Of a stretch of 64,000 nt of DNA, positions 5,197 through 64,000 are shown in pieces. The notes under the pieces were generated by a model. That model was not told the DNA's origin, did no database searches, and saw only the letters and a list, made by a program, of their open reading frames with translations. Position 1 is the stretch's first letter. The number at the start of each line of letters is the position of its first letter. The DNA is from Bolinopsis microptera. Taxonomy: Eukaryota; Ctenophora; Tentaculata; Lobata; Bolinopsidae. The translations under genes and the position numbers were made by a program. The stretch spans positions 868,001-932,000 of the forward strand of contig NC_087077.1 in assembly GCF_026151205.1 (NCBI RefSeq), written 5' to 3'.

Positions 5197-7116
5197 ATGA
5201 GTATGGCAACGTTAGAGATCTCGCAGGACACGAGGCATGGTGCACCAGATGTTATGTTTGGTGATTTTAGTGAAAGCGAGGTGGCATCTATAATTTACAA
5301 CTCAAAGTTGTTCAACAAACAAGACTCACTTTCGTTTGGTACTTTTAGTGAGGAAGAGATCAATGAGATTTTAGATGCATCTCACGCAGAAAAGAAGTTT
5401 GTTGAATTCGATTTTGAAGAGGTAGTTGCTCCTCAAATAACCCCAGAAACGTCTCCAGTAAAAACTGATGAAGTCATCGAGGAGACACCTGAAGAAATCA
5501 TAAATGGTAACGAGGAAACACCAGTTATCACCTGTCCTCCATCTCCCCCTAAAGATCACCCGATCGTGCTGGACTTTAGTTCATCCCAGCAACTAGCTCC
5601 GCAAGTTCCAAACCTGTCCACACCAGAACGCACAGATATTGACGAAGTACTGAAAATCCTAATAGAAGAAACTGTGAAGTCCAGTTCTTTTTCTGCTCCA
5701 CCCGCCCCAACTCACCAGGCAACCCTGCAATCATCATTCCCATACAGCACTCAGCCGAATACCTGGTCCACTGGTCCTACCGCGCAAGGCTGGCCCAATC
5801 CTACCAAGAGTTCCTTCACAACAGATTTTTACTCAGCTCCTCAGAGCACTGAACAGATCTGGTCTAAGCCTCCTGAACCTACATCAGTTTGGTCAAACGG
5901 GACTGGCAACCAATGGTCCTCCTTGTTTAAGAACTCTGATCTCAAAGAGGAGGAACCTTCTAAAAACGTTCTTCCCCAGATCCTCTCAGAAAACGTCCCC
6001 ACCTCAATCAAGGACCACGAGCTCATGATGCTGGGCTCGCAGCTGCAACTCATGACTATTTCCCATCACATGCCTGTTAACATAGTTCCCAGAGGTCTGA
6101 TAAACAAGTCAACCAACTGTTTTGCTCATGCGCCTCTGCAGGCCCTCCTCGTTTCACCTCTCTACCATGTTATTCAACAGATAGACTCCTCGTACGCCCT
6201 CTCGCCCGTCCTCAGTGCTGTAAAGCAGTTCTTCAAAAGTTTTAATCCTGCTCTGGGTGTTGTGGACAAGATGGATCCACCATTTGAGCCCACGTGTATC
6301 TACGAGATGCTGAGGAACAAGATGCCTAATTTCAATGAAAATGGTAGACAAGAGGATGCAGAAGAATTCCTGGGAATCATCCTTTCAAACTTACACGATG
6401 AAATGGTTTCTGCCATTAGATCAGCTAAAAAAACAGTTTCCTTGGCTGATACAGTTCTCGGTTCCGGTGACGATGGTGAGTGGCAGCAGATTGGGAGAAA
6501 AAACAAGATTCAAGTTACACGAAACACATCAAACAACGAGCCCAGCCCTGTCAGCGAGCTGTTTGGAGGTCTAACCAGATCTGTTGTTTCAAAAGCGGGA
6601 GCTAAAGAATCGGCCACTCTTCAGCCCTTCCTATCTGTCCAGCTGGACCTGCAGCACCAAAACATCACCTCTGTCAGAGATGCTCTGTGCCACTTCACTC
6701 ACAAGGAGCAGATATATCTTAACGACGTGAAGTGTTACCGCAGGGAAACACTAGAGTCCTTACCGCCCGTTCTTATCCTCCACTTAAAGAGGTTTATTTT
6801 CGATGACGCAGCGAAATCATGCCAGAAACTTCTCAAGGAGATAGACTTTAACATAGACATGACGATATCAGATGACATGATGTCAGCAATAGGCACAACA
6901 TTAACTGCCGAGAGACGCTACCATTTGTTTGGGGTCGTCTACCACCATGGTTCTCACGCTACAGGGGGACATTATTCTGCCATGGTTTATCATCCTTATA
7001 TTCAATGTTGGGTTAATGCTGACGATGATAAAGTTGTCCATCAAGATGACAATGCAGTCTTGAAGCACATTCCCGGACGGTCCGCTTACCTTCTTTTCTA
7101 CAAACGTGTTGCTTAG
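5197..7116 (+). CDS. USP10: Ubiquitin carboxyl-terminal hydrolase 10
   Basis: A 639-residue cysteine deubiquitinase in one exon. I start at ATG 5197 (MSMATLEIS); the frame is open slightly further but only through a GTG. Near the N-terminus are two motifs of the type that docks USP10 onto the NTF2-like domain of G3BP: FGDF at residues 21-24 and FGTF at 47-50. A low-complexity P/S/T/Q-rich region follows to about residue 290. The USP domain starts at PRGLINKS. The nucleophile is Cys308 (NCFAHAPLQ), with the oxyanion Asn five residues before it. RQEDAEEFLG and SATLQPFLSVQLD are family signatures. The general-base His592 lies in GGHYSAMV and the Asp in NADDDKVV, so the triad is complete. It is shorter than the human protein (about 800), mainly in the linker. 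A canonical AATAAA lies at 7528-7533. Confidence 0.93.
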   Translation: MSMATLEISQDTRHGAPDVMFGDFSESEVASIIYNSKLFNKQDSLSFGTFSEEEINEILDASHAEKKFVEFDFEEVVAPQITPETSPVKTDEVIEETPEEIINGNEETPVITCPPSPPKDHPIVLDFSSSQQLAPQVPNLSTPERTDIDEVLKILIEETVKSSSFSAPPAPTHQATLQSSFPYSTQPNTWSTGPTAQGWPNPTKSSFTTDFYSAPQSTEQIWSKPPEPTSVWSNGTGNQWSSLFKNSDLKEEEPSKNVLPQILSENVPTSIKDHELMMLGSQLQLMTISHHMPVNIVPRGLINKSTNCFAHAPLQALLVSPLYHVIQQIDSSYALSPVLSAVKQFFKSFNPALGVVDKMDPPFEPTCIYEMLRNKMPNFNENGRQEDAEEFLGIILSNLHDEMVSAIRSAKKTVSLADTVLGSGDDGEWQQIGRKNKIQVTRNTSNNEPSPVSELFGGLTRSVVSKAGAKESATLQPFLSVQLDLQHQNITSVRDALCHFTHKEQIYLNDVKCYRRETLESLPPVLILHLKRFIFDDAAKSCQKLLKEIDFNIDMTISDDMMSAIGTTLTAERRYHLFGVVYHHGSHATGGHYSAMVYHPYIQCWVNADDDKVVHQDDNAVLKHIPGRSAYLLFYKRVA

Positions 7117-47521: not shown

Positions 47522-47795
47522 TATGAGAGGAGCTAAAGAAGGTGAATTATTTGTAGGAATGTGATTTGAAGAGACGTTTTCGGAGGAATGTTTTCTTCTC
47601 TTTATGGCCATGATCCCCCGTAGATTTATTTCTTTTACTCAGATCCTAAATGTAATAGCAATATTACATTTTCAACGGTCGCTTTTAAACTAAGTTAACC
47701 AAATATAAAATCAATTACAAAATAAAAAGATTAAAAATATTCAGTGAATTTATTAGTCTTTTCATTTGATCTGAATGAACAACCCTGATAAGCTA

Positions 47796-49128
47796 ATTAC
47801 TGAGCAGCCCAGGAACTAACCGGGACGGTACTTACTGAGCAGCCCAGGAACTAACCGGGACGGTACTTACTGAGCAGCCCAGGAACTAACCGGGACGGTA
47901 CTTACTGAGCAGCCCAGGAACTAACCGGGACGGTACTTACTGAGCAGCCCAGGAACTAACCGGGACGGTACTTACTGAGCAGCCCAGGAACTAACCGGGA
48001 CGGTACTTACTGAGCAGCCCAGGAACTAACCGGGACGGTACTTACTGAGCAGCCCAGGAACTAACCGGGACGGTACTTACTGAGCAGCCCAGGAACTAAC
48101 CGGGACGGTACTTACTGAGCAGCCCAGGAACTAACCGGGACGGTACTTACTGAGCAGCCCAGGAACTAACCGGGACGGTACTTACTGAGCAGCCCAGGAA
48201 CTAACCGGGACGGTACTTACTGAGCAGCCCAGGAACTAACCGGGACGGTACTTACTGAGCAGCCCAGGAACTAACCGGGACGGTACTTACTGAGCAGCCC
48301 AGGAACTAACCGGGACGGTACTTACTGAGCAGCCCAGGAACTAACCGGGACGGTACTTACTGAGCAGCCCAGGAACTAACCGGGACGGTACTTACTGAGC
48401 AGCCCAGGAACTAACCGGGACGGTACTTACTGAGCAGCCCAGGAACTAACCGGGACGGTACTTACTGAGCAGCCCAGGAACTAACCGGGACGGTACTTAC
48501 TGAGCAGCCCAGGAACTAACCGGGACGGTACTTACTGAGCAGCCCAGGAACTAACCGGGACGGTACTTACTGAGCAGCCCAGGAACTAACCGGGACGGTA
48601 CTTACTGAGCAGCCCAGGAACTAACCGGGACGGTACTTACTGAGCAGCCCAGGAACTAACCGGGACGGTACTTACTGAGCAGCCCAGGAACTAACCGGGA
48701 CGGTACTTACTGAGCAGCCCAGGAACTAACCGGGACGGTACTTACTGAGCAGCCCAGGAACTAACCGGGACGGTACTTACTGAGCAGCCCAGGAACTAAC
48801 CGGGACGGTACTTACTGAGCAGCCCAGGAACTAACCGGGACGGTACTTACTGAGCAGCCCAGGAACTAACCGGGACGGTACTTACTGAGCAGCCCAGGAA
48901 CTAACCGGGACGGTACTTACTGAGCAGCCCAGGAACTAACCGGGACGGTACTTACTGAGCAGCCCAGGAACTAACCGGGACGGTACTTACTGAGCAGCCC
49001 AGGAACTAACCGGGACGGTACTTACTGAGCAGCCCAGGAACTAACCGGGACGGTACTTACTGAGCAGCCCAGGAACTAACCGGGACGGTAGAATTACTGA
49101 GCAGCCCAGGAACTAACCGGGACGGTAG
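47796..49128. repeat. 35-bp minisatellite, about 38 near-identical units
   Basis: Unit on + strand: cttactgagcagcccaggaa followed by ctaaccgggacggta. About 38 copies from 47796 to 49128 look identical except at both ends (attactgag at the left, gaattactgag at the right). On the minus strand, the sense of the E-Syt gene, each unit contains gctgctCAGTAAGTacc: a perfect GTAAGT and an in-frame TAA after CAG. The unit corresponds to the end of a candidate last exon of E-Syt (49094-49167). An AATAAA for that strand lies near 47745, so the array could be 3' UTR. Confidence 0.9.
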
Positions 49129-49217
49129 GAGATGAAGGTCGACGTATCTCCCCACTCAGCTGTATACCTCTAAATATAACAGAGACAGATATCTCACCTG
49201 CCTTCTCTCCAGGCTTT
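49094..49217 (-). CDS. Candidate terminal exons of the E-Syt-like gene
   Basis: Two small minus-strand exons could follow 49417-49626 if the donor gtttgt after FLKK is used: a 20-nt exon 49198-49217 and an exon 49094-49167 ending CAG TAA. Phases 2-1-1 agree. The product would continue the second C2 domain as AGIQLSGEIRRPSS, plausible for the last strand, and end WAAQ. Acceptors are weak, so the simpler reading, with the protein ending at the TAA at 49417-49419, stays possible. Confidence 0.35.
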
Positions 49218-49416
49218 CTTATTAAATCGTACCTACGATGTGATTAATACAATACAAATACTTAGAACCTAACCTGGAATTAGAAACTAAAACTAGCTAA
49301 ATCTACCAAACTATAATATCTGTTTGCTAAGAACGAAGAGGCTGAAAACAAAACTTACGATTAAGGTATACCATATCATATAGCTAGAGCTGAATAAGGT
49401 TAAATAATCCAGATAA

Positions 49417-52400
49417 TTAAAGCCTTAAGGTTAAATTTCTAACAAACTTTTTTAAGAAGTTGTAAGCGTTGGTAGAAGGTAGGTCCACTTGAGTGTAACC
49501 TAGGAAGTCATCAGTTCCAATATCATCAGCATCGTAGAGCTCCAACTTAACTGATACTACAGTGTTTATGTCTATCACTGTTCGCTCAAATATGTCGTTG
49601 AAAACTGGATTCAGTGTCTTAGGGACCTATAGATTGTTAATGATATTGAAATAGTTAATGATATTGAAATAGTTAATGATATTGAAATAGTTAATGATAT
49701 TGAAATAGTTAATGATATTGAAATAGTTAATTGCATTAAAATAGTGAATGATATAAAAATAGTGAATGCCATTGAAATATTGTTCGGATTTTTAACAGCT
49801 GCTAGGCGATGAAACAAATCATCTTAAAATGGTGTTCAGCGAATGGAAGGTAAAAATAAAAAGTGATTCCTAAATCCTATAGCAGAGTTAGCAGTACCAG
49901 TTCAAATACTCCAGTTTGACGTGAACCACCCCTCTCTCCCTCAATAGAAACTAACCGTTTTGGAACGATGTTCCAGTTCACCGTTAATGAACAGCTTGAC
50001 GTACGGATCACTTTTACCGTTGAAGTCCTCACTAATAAGATCTGTAGCATAGTGGGTGTGGATCTGGAGAACCCCGCTAGGAGATCCCAGGATGGGTATT
50101 GGTTTTAACTTGCTGCCTCCCATCGCTTGTTCCTCTCCCACTACTACTCTGTAGTCTGAGATTATGCCACGTTTTAAGAATGCTTTGTTATCTGACGCTA
50201 TTAATTTCTAAAGGTTTTTTAAAGATGTGCGACCAATTCTCAGAACTCTTTGTCATACAATTTTCTTCAGTGCCAAATATTTAATATCTATTCTAGATGA
50301 TAATCGACTACGTAATGAAGTTTCTCGATTATTTTGTATGGTTAATAATACCCACGCATCACTAAAAATCGACTAAATAATAAAATTTCTAGATTCTTTT
50401 TAAACGTAAATAATACCCACGCACCAGTAACATCAGTATTGACTTGGTGTATAGGCACCATTGGAAGGACCTCTATTTTAGCGTTCACTTTCAGTCCAAC
50501 ATTCTTTGACCGGTTTTCCAAAGTTCTCTCAATAACTGCATCTCGAAATGCCTCCAACAAAATTATCTGTATTGATAAATTTGAAGTGTGAATAATTTTA
50601 CCGATATTACCAATATTACCAATAACTTTCAGATAATTTTTGTCCGTTTGACAAATTTTATAGAACAATTATAAACCTCGTAAAATGTTAGCACATTCTC
50701 GCGATAACAAACTAGATATCCTAACCTCAGTAGAAACGTATTTATTAGAAGATATGAACTGTCCGGAGAGGGCCTGGATATGGTTACACTTCTGAACCGA
50801 CACTTTCAGGACCTCATCGTAATCATACACGAACATGTTGAACATTTTCACAGTCCGAGATGAGTCGTTACTCAGGAGAACTACTGTTTCTCGTTCTGCG
50901 TTTTGCGTCTTCACCTGTTAAATACAAATTTAAAGGATGATGGGGAACGTTTATCTAGGGGGTCGGTTCAGTTTTGGAAGGTTTTAACTTAAGAGAGGGG
51001 AATGTGTTCAGAGAGCTTGGAACATTTCAACTTTAAGTTTAAAGGAACTTGGTTAGATATAGATTTAATGGAGTACAATTTCACTAGAATACTCTAATAG
51101 TAGGGTTAGTCATTTTAAATGATAGAAACGTTTCAGACGAGAAATATAGCTCAAAGTCTACACTGTGTACGAGTATTGTCTTTGATCTAGTTTTAAAATA
51201 TCCTAGCGATAGAAACTCAAGAGCATAAACCACATAAATATGACGTGTTAGATAATCACGTGTTTGCATTCTGAATAGAGCTGATAAGGGGAAGTGATTG
51301 TTATTAAATCTACAATTTTCAGGGGAAGCCTGAATGTTATCAATGTTGATTTTGCTGCAGATTCACAGATTGGTGCGTTGTTCATGAAAATGGAAACATA
51401 TTACTGGATTAGAGTGAAGTCAGTCAGTTATGAGTTATATTTCCCTTTTTCGGCTGTTAATCAGATTCATTCGTTTTAAGATAAGAACATAAACACTTTG
51501 CAATCATTTGACCTCCAAACAATGTTAGCACTGAAAATTATCTTATCTGCATATTTGCACCGGAAATTGGACCTTTGAAGTTAATTTGAAAATTCGCATG
51601 TCGTAATGCAATATCAATTCAATTTCAACTCCCCTGCATATCCAACAATCAGTCTATAATTCAGCGGGACTCGTCTAATGGATGGTCATGGGTGCTCAAC
51701 TCAATATACACTATACAGTGCATATTTATTTCAGGACCCTTGACCGGCCGTTAGATAATGCACTCGTGATCAGATCACGCGATGTGGCAAACAATGTGTT
51801 TCTTTATAAAGGAGTAGGAGAAGTGTACTCCTGTTATTGGTTCTAACCTCACAGCTGTGAAAGACTAAAGTAAGGTATCACTGCTAGAGGTCATCTTTAC
51901 TAAGTCTGGATGTTTTACCTTGATTTGAAGGTCCTGATGGTACATAGTCCCTGTGTAAGATAGCAGGTACATTTCAATATCAACTAACAGTACTCCAATT
52001 GCTAAAGAGGGGTTCCGGGGGATAATGAGAGTTTCAACTGCATCCTGGTAATTAATTAATTAATTAAGATATCCTGTTCTTCTTAATTGTCATTGATTAT
52101 GCATTTCGTCGAGAAAATCGAATGATTTCACACCAACAATTTTGATTCCACCAAACGTTAAAGCTGCATTGTACTGAAAAGAACAAACCTTTTGAAAATC
52201 AAGATATATCCGTCCTGGGAAGACTAACATTTTAGCCACACTATCCTCAATAATATTCCTTATCCAATCCTTGAGTCCAGGAAGTATGTCCATATCCAGG
52301 TTCGTAAGGAACTCAATGTTGAAGTCTACCTGGAAGTAAACGAAATGTGGGTGTTCAAGAAAATGCCTCATATCTTAGTTGAAACGTGTTTCAACTAAAT

Positions 52401-54427
52401 TATTGAACGTGATTGTTAACGATTGGCAAAAGAGTGTCAATAAAAATGGTTTTCAGGATTGACACAAAAATTGAACCACAAAAATTGAACCACAAAAATT
52501 GAACCACTAAAAGTAGCCAGTTCCAGCGATAGTTTCCTTGCTATATTAGCAAAAGTTATCAACGAATCCTTAAGTACAGGCATATTTCCACAGGCCCTTA
52601 AAATTGCCAAAGTAACTCCCATCCATAAAGGAGGCTCTAAACTTGACGTTGAAAATTATAGACCCATCTCTCTCTTAGGTTCCTTCTCAAAAATCTACGA
52701 AAAACTGATGCACCGACGTGTCTTAGAATTTCTCAACAAAAATAGTTCTTTATTCGAAAATCAGTATGGGTTCCGTCCAGGAAGGTCCTGTGAACATGCT
52801 CTTCTTAATGCACAAAGTACAATTTTACACTCTCTTAGCAAAAACCAAATTTCACTACTGCTATTATTAGATTACAGTAAAGCGTTTGACGTCCTGGATC
52901 ATGCTACACTGCTAAATAAATTACAGCACTACGGCATCCGGGGAATAGCTCTAAAGTGGTTTGAGTCATACCTAAGTGATAGAAGCCAATATGTAGCAAT
53001 AAACAATTCACATTCGTCCCACAAGCCTATTGTGCATGGTGTTCCACAAGGGAGCATACTAGGTCCCTTACTTTTCGTCATATACATCAACGATCTTCCC
53101 GGTATTTCTAACATGATGGTAAAATTCATACTTTATGCAGACGATGCAAATATCATTATTAACGGTTCCAATGTCCAAGAACTAATGCTAAGGGTCAACC
53201 AACTAACGGAAACATTATCACGGTGGGTTAATAGCAACGGATTAGCACTAAATCTAAAAAAGACGTGTTATATGATTTTCTCGAAAAAGCGCATAGAACC
53301 ATCATTGATTAAAGTACAAATAGAAAATACAGTATTAGAACGTAAAACTGAAGCCCGGTTTCTTGGTGTAATTGTAGATGAAAAGCTTAACTGGAGTAGC
53401 CACATAAAAGCACTGAGGAGCAAGATGTCAAGATTTATTGGGGTGATGTACAGGATAAAACATAAATTGCCAATGAAGGCCCGTTTACAGATTTTCCAAA
53501 GTTTTGTTCAGTCCCATTTAAACTTCTGCTCACTTGTCTGGGGATTTGCTTCAAAATCTCTTATAGAATCTCTTTTTGCTAAACAAAAACAAGGTATGAG
53601 GGCAGTTATGGCCGGAAATGTGAACTACTACTACAAGGACGGAAAACTGCCAGAGCACACAAAACTAGCATTTAAAGAACACGAGGTCTTAACCGTTCAA
53701 GGGGTTATCGTTAAAAACGCACTTATTTTACTGCACAAAGTTCGAAATATGTCTAGTTTGTTACCTAAATCGATTTCAGAACTTTTCCCTCCTAACACAC
53801 CCAAACAAGGAACGACACACGAACAAAACTTAGACTGGTTATCAATTTACTCACAGACTGACCTGAGATCTAGCATCTTTTATAAAGGCCCAATGCTCGC
53901 TATTTCAGAGCATAACACTCGCATTACATGCCCATCCAGTATATTTTCTATCAACATATATAAGAATTCGTCAAAAAAAGTACTACTAGACTTGCAAAGT
54001 GCTGGCTGCAACGACGAATGGCCACCATTTTTACTCCACAACCTACCTGGATTACGTAAATCACAAAGAACATAGTCAATAATCACTCAAAACCAAACTC
54101 ATACAGCTCAAATTAAACAATCTGAATCAGGACAACATTTCTAACCACCTGCCATTCTAACAGCACATTCCTTATTTCACTGCCACATAGCGCATATCTA
54201 CACTGATAACACACCTAATTGCGGTGAGGCAGCATCATAAAGTTACCAATATCAAATATGTTTGCAGATCAGGGCCAGTCGACTCGACCAATAAAATTTT
54301 AATCGAATAGTTTTAATAGATAACATCACAATTATAATCTGCGTGCCCCTCGGGGATGAATATTTAACTTATTTCAATTATATATTACTTTTGAGTAAAC
54401 ATTGGCTGGTACTACGGACCAGTCCCC

Positions 54428-54467
<40 letters not shown>

Positions 54468-56530
54468 TGAAGACAAACCTTTGGTCGCTCCATCAGAGTG
54501 ATAAAGACACGAGTGATGCAGGGGAAGACCTTACCTTTGGTCGCTCCATCAGAGTGATAAAGACACGAGTGATGCAGGGGAAGACCTTACCTTTGGTCGC
54601 TCCATCAGAGTGATAAAGACACGAGTGATGCAGGGGAAGGCCTTACCTTTGGTCGCTCCATCAGAGTGATAAAGATACGAGTGATGCAGGGGAAGGCCTT
54701 ACCTTTGGTCGCTCCATCAGAGTGATAAAGACACGAGTGATGCAGGGGAAGGCCTTACCTTTGGTCGCTCCATCAGAGTGATAAAGACACGAGTGATGCA
54801 GGGGAAGGCCTTACCTTTGGTCGCTCCATCAGAGTGATAAAGACACGAGTGATGCAGGGGAAGGCCTTACCTTTGGTCGCTCCATCAGAGTGATAAAGAC
54901 ACGAGTGATGCAGGGGAAGGCTTACCTTTGGTCGCTCCATCAGAGTGATAAAGACACGAGTGATGCAGGGGAAGGCTTACCTTTGGTCGCTCCATCAGAG
55001 TGATAAAGACACGAGTGATGCAGGGGAAGGCTTTAGTTTTGTCTAGCTCCACCACAAATTTACACTTCCCACAGTAATGCACGTCCTTCAACAGCACGTC
55101 TATACTCAAGTTCTTTATCTTAAATTCAACCTAAATGTATCTGGTGTCATCAAGATTCAAGATCATAAAACAAGATGTGCTAAATCACAACACATTAATT
55201 TACAGTCTTACTAATACTGTCTATAACAATGATTTGTTGTCCTACCTTGAGCAGCATTCATCCCACATTCCTCTGTACGAACCTTGAACATCATCTTAAA
55301 GTCGTTAGAGCTAATAACGGGTCGCATCTCCAGAATGTAGAATCGTTTAGGATTGTAGGAGCCAGGCTCAGGGCTCCCTCCGTTGGTATCGTGCTGTGAT
55401 TCAGATCTTGTATCAGATCCCGTCACTCCCTCTATTACTGGAGTTGAAGTTCCGAAATCAAACTGCCTGGAAAAGTGGAAATGTGGAAATGTCACGAGTT
55501 GAAACTACGTGAACAGAGACAATTAATTGAACCCCTTCATTTCTGCCGTTTTCCGGGACAAAAATATTTTCAACTGTAAAAATCGACGATACAAATTTGT
55601 TAACCCTCCTCTAAAAAAGTGATTTCAATTTCCGGCACCATCCGGAAAGAGTTTACACCACTAAAAAAAACTCACGTAAGAACAATCTTAGATATGTATC
55701 CAGGTTTGACCTCAGCAAGAATCGGATCTAACATCTCCTTCATCTTTACGAAAATAGCATTTCTATTGGTCTCGTAAAACAGTTTTATCATCAGGTTCAA
55801 CCAATTCATGCTCTCTGGTCGTGATATCCTACCTAGGAGAACTTCACATTTTTGTTAAGGAACGTGCTAACGTAAGTCAGCTGATTCACCATATTTTGTC
55901 ACGCCCATGGTACGTGATAAAAAACCAGCTGAAAATGGAATTAATCACGTACGTGGGGAATTTTCTTCCCACGAAAAACAATTAATCACACACATTACGG
56001 AGGGGCCTGGGAACTGATAAATTATTATATTTATCTAGTCAATTATTATAGACTCTAAACATCCTGAAAAACACGTCCGGATGTCCCGCTGATAAAAAGG
56101 AGGAAGTTAACAAGCCTTACCATCAGGCGTGAGATGTTTGCTGTTGCTCCTCATGAACTCCTGTCTCCGCTCCTCGAACGGTCTGTACCTGCAGTATCAT
56201 GATACTGAAGCTCTAGATTCAAGTAATTAAGTAATTAATTAAGTAATTGCTGGATAGCTAGCACTGTGATCATGGGTCTCATTTCGTGATTCTGTCAAGG
56301 TCTGAAAACTTTATAAATCAGGGAAATCAGAACTTTTCTTGGAAGTATTTAAAAGCTCTACTGATATCTAGAATAGTGATATCTACAAATAAACAGAAAA
56401 CAAGACTAACTTTTTCTTCTTCTTAAGGAAGAGCAGAGCGAAGAGGGTGAGGGAAAGGGCTATGACGGCCCCCAAACCCCCACTTATGAGAGCGACGTAC
56501 AGCCATGCCATAAAGAGATGGCTCAAGGAC
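49417..56530 (-). CDS. ESYT: Extended synaptotagmin-like protein (SMP + C2 domains)
   Basis: ER-anchored lipid-transfer tether. Minus-strand exons in order: 56411-56530 (ATG at 56511), 56121-56188, 55676-55832, 55283-55466, 54981-55130, 52189-52329, 51919-52044, 50726-50914, 50425-50566, 49956-50207 and 49417-49626. Phases agree except 50425-50566 to 49956-50207, where the exact junction is open. The first exon is a membrane segment (ALISGGLGAVIALSLTLFAL) ending KKKKK. The SMP domain runs from SMNWLNLMIKLFYE through FITLMERPK|VDFNIEF to LPGLKDWIRNIIEDSVA. A degenerate C2 follows (GVLLVDIEMYLLS, VLKVSVQKC). The last C2 is canonical: DFNGKSDPYVKLFING, SKT|VPKTLNPVFND and LYDADDIGTDDFLG, so the Ca2+ aspartates are present. 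A LINE sits in the 52330-54980 intron. An upstream non-coding exon is likely. Only two C2 domains are visible. Confidence 0.8.
49629..49790. repeat. 18-bp tandem repeat in an E-Syt intron
   Basis: About nine units of ttaatgatattgaaatag, diverging toward the right end, directly beside the 49417-49626 exon. Confidence 0.85.
52463..54462 (+). mobile_element. LINE (jockey/CR1-type), 5'-truncated, 2.0 kb, TSD AGGATTGA
   Basis: The element ends in a 35-base A run (54428-54462) and is flanked by AGGATTGA at 52455-52462 and 54463-54470. The RT frame is open from about 52513 to 54075: VTPIHKGGSKLDVENYRPIS, QYGFRPGRSCEHAL, the Asp of LDYSKAFD, HGVPQGSILGPLLF and YADD with both catalytic aspartates, then the C-terminal region FLGVIVDEKLNWSSHIK. 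No stop interrupts RT, so the insertion is young. The endonuclease half is missing through 5' truncation. It sits antisense in the E-Syt intron, its tail abutting the 56-bp minisatellite. Confidence 0.9.
54471..55030. repeat. 56-bp minisatellite spanning an exon-intron border
   Basis: About ten units of 55-56 bp (ttacctttggtcgctccatc ... gatgcaggggaaggcc). On the minus strand each unit is the last roughly 49 bases of the E-Syt exon 54981-55130 plus its donor, ...CGACCAAAG|GTAAG. Donor-like borders fall at 54981, 54926, 54871, 54815, 54759, 54703, 54647, 54591 and 54535 (all GTAAG) and near 54479 (GTTTG). Only the first keeps the known frame; readthrough shifts frame and meets stops. Confidence 0.9.
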
Positions 56531-60836: not shown

Positions 60837-63357
60837 AATCCTCCACCTTCCATCACGCGTAAATCAGACCTTTAATTGGCAGTACCACTTATAGCGAGAG
60901 TGTATATATCTTATTCTGTGATCTTATCTTATCTCTACACTCATTCCCACACAGCTAAATGAGCATAGTTAAGAAGTTCTTCGAGTTTATTTTCTCTCTA
61001 ACTTGATCGCTTGAGATTGCCGTTGCAGAGGTCGTTATAGAAACCTGCCCTCCTTTTTCTACCATTTATATTAAAGAAATACGCTTTAGAAGCACTAAAA
61101 GAACTCCTTCATGCCTAAATAAACGAAATTTAGAGATTGTTCTCTGTTTAAAATTGGCGGATGATACACAAAAAATATTGTACACCCGCGTTAACAGATA
61201 AGCTGCAAGATTTAATTATATTTCGAAAAAAATGAACCACCCTAACGTGATGAGAATCATCTGGTCATAGAATTAACATTGTCATTGAATAAGGGAGATA
61301 AAGAGGTGCAGTTATTGAACCAAACAAGAAAAATAATACCAAGTTAAGCACTAAGCAGGAGACACTTTCGGATATTGCAGTTATTGAACCAAACAAGAGA
61401 AATAATACCAAGTTAAGCACTAAGCAGGAGACACTTTCGGATATTGCAGTTATTGAACCAAACAAATAATACCAAGTTAAGCACTAAGCAGGAGACACTT
61501 TCGGATATTGCAGTTATTGAACCAAACAAGAGAATACCAAGTTAAGTACTAAGCAGGAGACACTTTCGGATATTTCCGGTTTTAAAACTTGAACGGTTGA
61601 AAAACACCTGTTGGAAAGCCAAGCCAGAGCGTCATACAGTGTGCCAACAATTCAGGTATATAGAATGTAAGGTTGGAACGCAATCTGTTGAATTCAGGGT
61701 TGAATTCAGGTGCAGAAGCAAGACAGGGAGCTGAGGGGGGTAATGACTAGTGAGGTGTAATTATGACAGTAATTAGTGGTGATAACAGTATAGAGCAGGT
61801 GGGTGTTAAAGCTAGCTGTATCTCTCTCTCTTCTATTCCATAGAATTAACCACCTATTATATAGTCTAGAGTTTTCCGTGTTACGAATGAGAAATATTGT
61901 TCGCATACCAAACGTAACTGAATCTAAATTGGCATGAATAGTTATCCGGTATAAAATACTGGAAAGCAAACCCACAAACGTGGAGGAAAACAGAAGACAG
62001 GTAGAAATATTGACTATAGGGTGGGAGCTGTAAACTTAAAACTTCTGCTGAGTACAGTGGAAATTTGAGATGGAGGAATTAGATCAATAATTAATTAATT
62101 AATAATTAATTATAGCACAACTTAGCTGTGCCCCACAGTAATTGTTAAATAAGATTCTGGAAAAGAGCAAACTTGAATTTCACACACAGTACTAGTAGTA
62201 ATAACACACAGTTGACTTACTAACTAAAGGGGGGTTTAGCGTTGGACTATAACTAACTACATATACAACTTTATTATAACTATTATTATATTTACCTTTA
62301 TTATATTTTCTATTGTTTACATATTGTTATTTCATATAATACCTATAGTCGGTTCAGCCATGGCTCTCTAGCTAGGGCAGGTTTGACTTATATATGTATA
62401 TAGTTGTATATATACAACTAACTACAACACATAATACAATTACACAGTGTTCTTTTCTATCTTGTCACAAGGGGTCGCCTCGAGATACGTTGTTTTCATG
62501 TGTACATGACTACCATCAATCGTACAATTACACATATTAAGTTATAGCAAGGTTAACCTTGTTAGTGTTGAACACTGGATCGTGTAGACGGCTAATATAT
62601 AACAGATCCCATATCGAAGTTATTATTCTCTTCAAACCTATCTTTACTGCTGACAAGGATCGAAACTCAAAGTGAGATTCGATCAGAAACCCCACCAATA
62701 TTCAAATAGTGAAAACGATCGTTTTGATTTCGTACAAAGATAATTACAAAATCGTACTTCTAGTTCTTTGCAATTTAAGGAATAGAATACACATTACACA
62801 TTATCACAACGAAACTGTGGGACACACAAGAATTTGATAATTATAAATTGCTTTACAGTTTACACTGACTTACTGTTCAAGAACAGGAAGTAAAATAAAG
62901 GATGAAATTCATATGTTTAGCCTATTTAGAATACAGAAAAGCGAAAATGAAGAATTCCTGACATTGTCACACAACAACAATGAAATTACTTATATATTCT
63001 TGAGTCTTAGTGTCAAAGTGCAAGCTGTGCCACTGATTTACGAAACTAGCCCGACTTTATCCTCACTAATCTGCGGGGAATCATGGTAAACTGAGAACAA
63101 TTAAAATACAATATTAGCACCAAGAAATGAGGGAAAAGTTACACGGTGATCTAATAGCGATCGAGTTAGGGAGAGAATTAACACGGAGAAATTCTTAATT
63201 GGACTATTTAGTTTCTTGATAATTTGGGAATGAGCGGCGAGATAATATCACAGAATAAGATATGAGATACAATCGAACAAGTGAAATACTGTGTAATATT
63301 AATAAGTGGCACTGCCAATTAAAGGTTTGAAGTGCACGTCATGGAAGGTGGAGGAAT
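60837..63357. mobile_element. Inverted-repeat structure, about 2.5 kb (possible TIR element)
   Basis: The left arm from 60837 (caatcctccaccttccatca ... aattggcagt.ccactta ... ctctctaacttgatcgct) and the right arm up to 63357 are complementary over about 180 bp with mismatches. The span contains a 64-69 bp tandem repeat (61309-61575) and no transposase. No target duplication is visible because a minisatellite starts at the right border. Confidence 0.5.
61309..61575. repeat. 64-69 bp tandem repeat, four units
   Basis: Units begin at 61309, 61377, 61446 and 61510 (gcagttattgaaccaaacaa ... gcaggagacactttcggata). Differences are small deletions in the A-rich part. The minus strand gives a hydrophobic repeated frame, which I read as a by-product. 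Confidence 0.85.
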
Positions 63358-63364
63358 GTGTTAC

Positions 63365-64000
63365 CCCACTGTGCAGTGTGAGGGTTGCAACGTTACCCCA
63401 CTGTGCAGTGTGAGGGTTGCAACGTTACCCCACTGTGCAGTGTGAGGGTTGCAACGTTACCCCACTGTGCAGTGTGAGGGATGCAGTGTTACCCCACTGT
63501 GCGGTGTGAGGGTTGCAACGTTACCCCACTGTGCAGTGTGAGGGTTGCAACGTTACCCCACTGTGCAGTGTGAGGGTTGCAACGTTACCCCACTGTGCAG
63601 TGTGAGGGTTGCAACGTTACCCCACTGTGCAGTGTGAGGGTTGCAACGTTACCCCACTGTGCAGTGTGAGGGTTGCAACGTTACCCCACTGTGCAGTGTG
63701 AGGGTTGCAACGTTACCCCACTGTGCAGTGTGAGGGTTGCAACGTTACCCCACTGTGCAGTGTGAGGGTTGCAACGTTACCCCACTGTGCAGTGTGAGGG
63801 TTGCAACGTTACCCCACTGTGCAGTGTGAGGGTTGCAACGTTACCCCACTGTGCAGTGTGAGGGTTGCAACGTTACTCCACTGTGCAGTGTGAGGGTTGC
63901 AACGTTACCCCACTGTGCAGTGTGAGGGATGCAGTGTTACCCCACTGTGCAGTGTGAGGGTTGCAACGTTACCCCACTGTGCAGTGTGAGGGATGCAGTG
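63365..64000. repeat. 32-bp minisatellite running off the window
   Basis: About 20 units of gttaccccactgtgcagtg + tgagggttgcaac. A variant unit ends ggatgcagt in place of ggttgcaac (near 63480, 63927 and the window edge). Starts right at the border of the inverted-repeat structure. Confidence 0.9.

What the first reader, a model, noticed from the sequence alone, without database searches (positions are those of the whole stretch)
54471..55130. Minisatellite that multiplies a 5' splice site of the E-Syt SMP exon
Seen: each 55-56 bp unit equals the last ~49 bases of a coding exon plus its GTAAG donor, giving nine in-line GTAAG donors and one GTTTG. Because 55/56 is not a multiple of three, only the first donor gives the frame into VDFNIEF. 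Use of any other should insert frameshifting, stop-containing sequence. Inference: the array either acts as a splice-site decoy or tuning device (copy number setting the share of NMD isoforms), or is tolerated because the first donor always wins.
Basis: partly seen in the sequence, partly recalled or inferred. Interest (0 to 1): 0.75.

Follow-up and report, generated by a model that had tools for sequence, protein, structure and literature searches.

The report
Tandem repeats copying a splice site
In what is probably a comb jelly, the DNA at the end of one gene segment, cutting signal included, has been copied about ten times in a row, and similar copying is seen at other segments of this gene and in another gene, apparently without spoiling the message.

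Summary
On the minus strand, exon 5 of a 13-exon gene ends at 54981; its last ~50 nt plus the donor recur so that ten donors stand in line (nine GTAAG, one GTTTGT). Two details are wrong: donors 5 and 8 are in phase with donor 1 and fail only through an in-frame stop, and the protein is SMP (MUG190-like) plus one C2, not a standard E-Syt. A fourth case (61 bp, six donors) lies in a Wntless gene among 17 arbitrarily chosen stretches of the assembly. Such boundary-spanning minisatellites are known in amphioxus as "mirages" and reportedly leave splicing normal there. A compact, evidently spliced relative (435 of 439 residues identical) shows the canonical joins at both arrays, and human minigene data favour the upstream of two equal donors under exon definition. 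Best reading: a recurrent duplication product, tolerated because the first donor is used; no sign of tuning was found, though no transcripts of this animal could be seen. New member of a known kind, in a probable ctenophore.

The parts
54981..55130 (-). Exon 5 (150 nt) of the SMP/C2 gene; its last ~50 nt are the source of the repeat
   Evidence: Gene model open over 616 codons; four relatives align through ...MERPK|VDFN...
54479..54980 (-). Array 1: nine extra copies of exon-5 end plus donor, 55/56-bp unit; donors 1-9 are GTAAG
54478..54478 (-). G of the tenth donor, GTTTGT, continuing into the unrepeated intron
   Evidence: introns 6 and 11 of the same gene also begin GTTTGT
52456..54470 (+). 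Non-LTR retrotransposon in intron 5, antisense to the gene, with its flanking repeats GGATTGA (52456-52462 and 54464-54470); A35 tail 54429-54463 begins 15 nt downstream of the G of donor 10; open frame with reverse transcriptase 52489-54075
   Evidence: RVT_1 131.4 bits; frame; tail and flanking repeat; exact 5' end inferred
52330..54980 (-). Intron 5 (2651 nt), phase 0
49118..49232 (-). Exon 12, ending CCTACCGTCCCG|GTTAGT
   Evidence: join ...P|DLSKRNK... as in P0003
47797..49127 (-). Array 2: 38 copies of the GTTAGTTCC donor, steps 37 then 35 x36; 36 identical units; 36 further CAGTAAGT sites at unit joins
47547..47645 (-). Terminal exon 13 (DLSKRNKSTGDHGHKEKKTFLRKRLFKSHSYK*), which places array 2 in intron 12 and not in a 3' UTR
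50302..50430 (-). Decayed two-copy 65-bp repeat (79% matches) beginning across the donor of intron 9; the second copy has GA in place of GT
   Evidence: score 35 against a shuffle mean of 13.7, 0 of 200 shuffles reach it
49636..49779 (-). 18-bp x8 array ending 9 nt before the start of exon 11; it does not span the acceptor

Best explanation
This is a boundary-spanning minisatellite (a 'mirage'). A stretch holding the end of exon 5 and its donor was tandemly duplicated by slippage or unequal exchange, probably between imperfect short repeats at the exon word CTAAAGCCTTC and the intron start, which lie one unit apart, and then expanded. The extra copies became intron. The message is unaffected because the donor nearest the upstream acceptor is chosen (exon definition: 150-nt exon, 152-nt upstream intron, 2651-nt downstream intron). 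Shown: the array, the gene model, the second array, canonical joins in relatives, premature stops from the other nine donors. Inferred: the duplication mechanism, first-donor use in this very animal, and near-neutrality.
For: Array anatomy. The exon word CTAAAGCCTTC at 55036 lies 56 nt before donor 1; unit joins read, 5' to 3', GTAAGCCTTC (2), GTAAGGCCTTC (5), GTAAGGTCTTC (2), and the intron edge reads GTTTGTCTTCAATCC. Same kind of array at intron 12 (38 donor copies) and a decayed one at intron 9: 3 of 12 donors and 0 of 12 acceptors of the gene score more than 4 sd above shuffles. Fourth case at a Wntless donor, L011 5859-6171 (Pfam WLS-like_TM 110.3 bits). P0003, on a 1518-nt contig where the genome spans about 7.5 kb, has both canonical joins; P0001, P0002 and P0004 agree at exon 5/6. 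Five human minigenes with two equal donors under exon definition used the upstream one exclusively (PMC9225289, part 1 of Results). Amphioxus mirages reportedly do not disturb splicing (PMC3087553 and PMC3902484, passages).
Against: No transcript of this animal was seen. P0003's species is unknown and its gene may lack the arrays; two of its four differences (T582S, V583L) lie in the exon-12 stretch that array 2 copies. The two GTAAG types computed are the strongest U1 matches of the gene (-9.5 and -10.0 kcal/mol; the other donors -1.6 to -8.5, U1 end recalled), so the later copies are strong competitors. The splice-choice rule is human data, and in the same study, without the filter for equal strength, the majority of events in all four intron classes preferred the downstream donor. 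Copy number rests on one assembly.
Confidence: 0.8

Rival explanations
1. Tuning device: competing donors divert part of the transcripts into nonsense-mediated decay, with copy number setting the share.
For: 9 of 9 alternative donors give a premature stop more than 1000 nt before the last junction. The GTAAG donors are strong. In human data as a whole the downstream donor is preferred in about 60% of events (PMC9225289).
Against: No protein with the array-encoded tail among 3 hits, a weak test. Arrays of the kind occur at other donors and in another gene, so nothing is special to this exon. Among equal donors under exon definition the upstream one is preferred.
Confidence: 0.1
2. Serial (recursive) splicing: because each copy of array 1 ends AAAG|GTAAG, a copy can act as acceptor and regenerate a donor, so the array is removed stepwise with the same final mRNA.
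For: Unit ends are AG|GT with zero net exon. The pyrimidine fraction before AAAG (0.47) lies within the range of the 12 true acceptors (0.41-0.82). In the Wntless array most units end TTTTCTTATTTTTACACAG|GATG|GTAGGG, an acceptor-like end (pyrimidine fraction 0.76).
Against: In array 1 the stretch before AAAG is poor in T (0.18, against 0.24-0.59 at the 12 true acceptors). In array 2 units end CCCG, without AG. In Wntless each step would leave 4 nt.
Confidence: 0.06
3. Assembly artefact: a short true duplication inflated or homogenised by assembly.
For: 36 identical units in array 2. If this is the published Bolinopsis microptera assembly, it was made with wtdbg and polished with short reads (PMC10232365, passages).
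Against: Array 1 holds ordered unit variants (55 against 56 bp, C/T, one G/A). Further arrays of the kind exist at other places, one of them decayed.
Confidence: 0.04

Closest known systems
Amphioxus mirages (Adh3, globins BflGb6 and BflGb9, troponin C; similar imperfect duplications in PGBD5)
   Same: Minisatellite-like tandem copies spanning exon-intron boundaries; 10-72 bp units in Adh3; many repeats carry AG/GT; regular splicing reported; cluster boundaries excluded from homogenisation (PMC3087553 and PMC3902484, passages)
   Different: Probably a ctenophore, not a cephalochordate; ten and 38 donor copies in one gene, against 3 and 6 repeat units in the two BflGb6 haplotypes; instability could not be tested
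Intron gain by tandem duplication of AGGT-containing segments
   Same: A duplicated segment carries AG|GT and could supply new splice sites (PMC4974935, abstract)
   Different: No new intron is seen; the copies lie inside an existing intron
Variable internal tandem repeats at exon-intron boundaries in human segmental duplications
   Same: Minisatellites that alter gene structure, some at exon-intron boundaries (PMC2812944, passages)
   Different: Those concern recent paralogs in segmental duplications; for array 1 the only match found in the assembly is its own place

Membership tests
Mirage (boundary-spanning minisatellite) | Head-to-tail repeat of minisatellite size | tested here: met
   56 bp x10 and 35 bp x38
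Mirage (boundary-spanning minisatellite) | Unit spans an exon-intron boundary and carries the splice signal | tested here: met
Mirage (boundary-spanning minisatellite) | Regular splicing of the mRNA is kept | tested here: inconclusive
   Canonical joins in relatives, but no transcript from this animal
Mirage (boundary-spanning minisatellite) | Length instability between alleles or in somatic cells | not testable with these tools
   One assembly only; its own place was the only match found for array 1
Extended synaptotagmin | SMP domain of the SMP_LBD family above cut-off | tested here: not met
   19.9 bits against 27; the MUG190-like SMP model is met with 49 against 35
Extended synaptotagmin | Two or more C2 domains (recalled) | tested here: not met
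   One C2 stretch

The most novel reading that the evidence does not exclude
Donor-spanning minisatellites are a genome-wide habit of this (probable ctenophore) lineage, biased towards 5' splice sites. They lengthen introns again and again and supply ready-made splice sites: an engine of intron growth and possibly of intron gain far outside the cephalochordates.
Probability: 0.3. Interest if true: 0.65.

Novelty: new member of a known kind. Interest (0 to 1): 0.42.

Why it matters
If mirages recur outside amphioxus, they are a general route by which introns grow and splice sites multiply. Natural arrays of ten to 38 like donors would also be ready-made tests of how the spliceosome picks one donor among equals.

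Tried and rejected
First model rejected: I first took the stretch before array 2 as the last exon, ending in SSWAAQ*, and kept 14 intronic residues near exon 10. Searches used that 605-aa version. The PDB query carried 12 residues past the end of exon 4. Relatives showed exon 13 and the right joins; the model was corrected and rescanned. The PDB search (no match) and the protein search were not repeated with it.

General enrichment of donor motifs in minisatellites: not seen. AGGTRAG or GTAAGT occurs in 1 of 38 TRF rows outside the window (period 18-150, at least 3 copies, overlapping rows not merged) and in 2 of 8 in the window, both from this gene. The looser motif GTWAGB or GTWAGC-type counted there adds 2 more rows outside the window.

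Positional bias: placing the first copies of five arrays of the gene at random in the collapsed gene gives at least 3 donors hit with probability 0.005, or 0.011 if wholly exonic placements are barred. I left out the 14-bp repeat at the retrotransposon edge and the A35 tail. The test was made after seeing the data and is suggestive only. In the Wntless piece 1 of 4 donors is spanned (by reading).

Coding-edge screen: one search had one training segment out of frame and was repeated correctly. One search shows only its 34 best rows, and array 1 is not among them, so its sensitivity is low; the test arrays' own gene was in its training set. I read out L011 and L018 candidates and left L020 5909-5946 and others unresolved.

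The two rows for the extra donors inside array 2 were computed at wrong coordinates and are not used.

Genome-wide count of donor arrays: not obtained.

Full report
What is there. The window lies at C6:868001-932000 of a 264.65-Mb, 232-contig assembly. On the minus strand from 56511 to 47547 lies a 13-exon gene with an open frame of 616 codons and GT-AG at 12 of 12 introns. It encodes an N-terminal hydrophobic stretch (by eye), an SMP domain best matched by the MUG190-like model (49 bits, cut-off 35) and one C2 domain (65.4 bits); the usual SMP model stays below its cut-off (19.9 against 27). "E-Syt" is therefore a loose label. The proteins named E-Syt3 match only 9-22% of the query by local alignment.

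The array. Exon 5 (55130-54981) ends CCAAAG|GTAAG. Its last ~50 nt plus donor recur so that ten donors stand in line, nine GTAAG and one GTTTGT, with steps of 55, 55 and seven times 56. TRF gives 10 copies, 98% matches. A search of the assembly with the array found only this place; the tool scores the best candidates only.

Origin. The exon word CTAAAGCCTTC (55036) lies 56 nt before donor 1, and the joins between units are GTAAGCCTTC, GTAAGGCCTTC and GTAAGGTCTTC; the 3'-most joins share GTCTTC with the unrepeated intron edge GTTTGTCTTCAATCC. Slippage between short imperfect repeats fits (inference). The last donor, GTTTGT, may be the original one or a decayed one; introns 6 and 11 of the gene also begin GTTTGT, so it is not a dead sequence in this gene. 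Fifteen nt downstream of its G begins a non-LTR retrotransposon, inserted antisense, with an A35 tail and flanked by the 7-bp repeat GGATTGA.

More of the same. Relatives of the protein carry a conserved C-terminus that is found here as exon 13 at 47645-47547. This shows that the 35-bp x38 array at 47797-49127 spans the donor of intron 12: 38 copies of GTTAGTTCC, 36 identical units, and 36 additional CAGTAAGT sites at unit joins. The later donors tested (5 of 37) would end the protein after 591 residues, in ...SSWAAQ. A third, decayed 65-bp x2 repeat spans the donor of intron 9 (score 35, shuffle mean 13.7, 0 of 200). So 3 of 12 donors and 0 of 12 acceptors of this gene stand more than 4 sd above shuffles; two acceptors (introns 7 and 10) are mildly high, with 7 and 6 of 200 shuffles reaching them. 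In 17 stretches of the same assembly picked without regard to content (169.8 kb) I found one further donor-spanning array: L011 5850-6221, 61 bp, six donors, in a Wntless gene, on the same contig and 262 kb from the window; some weaker candidates were left unresolved. The last exon of that gene has a repeat of about 38 bp that copies its coding end with the stop codon. Tandem repeats of period 20 or more make up 32,952 of 233,784 bp in window plus sample, though unevenly: one array in L015 covers about 9.9 kb.

How it most likely works. P0003 (435 of 439 identical; 1518-nt contig against about 7.5 kb of genome) and three more distant relatives read ...ERPKVDF... without insert. A search with the truncated product that donors 3-10 would give found 3 proteins, none with the array-encoded tail; clustering at 90% identity could hide one. 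In human data, among donors of near equal strength the upstream one is preferred under exon definition, most of all where a short intron lies upstream and a long one downstream, and five minigenes with equal donors used the upstream one exclusively (PMC9225289, abstract and part 1 of Results). Here the upstream intron is 152 nt and the downstream one 2651 nt; calling these short and long is my reading. The same study found a downstream preference in all four classes before the strength filter, which is a point against. I think that donor 1 is used and that the array is a tolerated product of tandem duplication.

What is known. Tandem repeats spanning exon-intron boundaries were named mirages in amphioxus Adh3; they also occur in amphioxus globin and troponin C genes, with similar imperfect duplications in PGBD5, reportedly without harm to mRNA splicing, and were proposed as a source of new introns (PMC3087553 and PMC3902484, passages). 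The present arrays meet the structural features; instability and normal splicing in this animal remain untested. A search for ctenophore plus minisatellite gave 2 papers, both off-topic by title and abstract start; Mnemiopsis plus tandem repeats, introns and splice sites gave 1, on fireflies. Searches on minisatellites and splice sites or boundaries (listings seen, apart from the papers cited) showed me no ctenophore case. This covers only the held open-access library.

Which animal. Assembly size and chromosome-sized contigs fit Bolinopsis microptera (265 Mb, 13 chromosomes, but 346 scaffolds; PMC11797021, passages). A relative from EukProt bears an identifier that I recall as the Pleurobrachia style. 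The species is an inference.

Noticed in passing
L011 5850-6221 (C6:605850-606221): Wntless gene: donor-spanning 61-bp x6 array, most of whose units also end in an acceptor-like TTTTCTTATTTTTACACAG
   Followed up: yes
L011 7426-7575: Repeat of about 38 bp copying the coding end and stop codon of the same Wntless gene
   Followed up: partly
L011 about 5220-5720: Long array of CACTGTAACAG-like units directly upstream of a Wntless exon acceptor
   Followed up: no
window 49636-49779: 18-bp x8 array with repeated ATTAAC, ending 9 nt before exon 11, where a branch point would be expected
   Followed up: partly
P0003 against window exons 11-13: The four differences of P0003 fall at residues 550-583, two of them in the stretch copied by array 2
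   Followed up: partly
window 61307-61574: 69-bp x4 array, part of which keeps a coding-like reading frame open on the plus strand
   Followed up: no
window 63360-63997: 32-bp x20 array reaching the window edge
   Followed up: no
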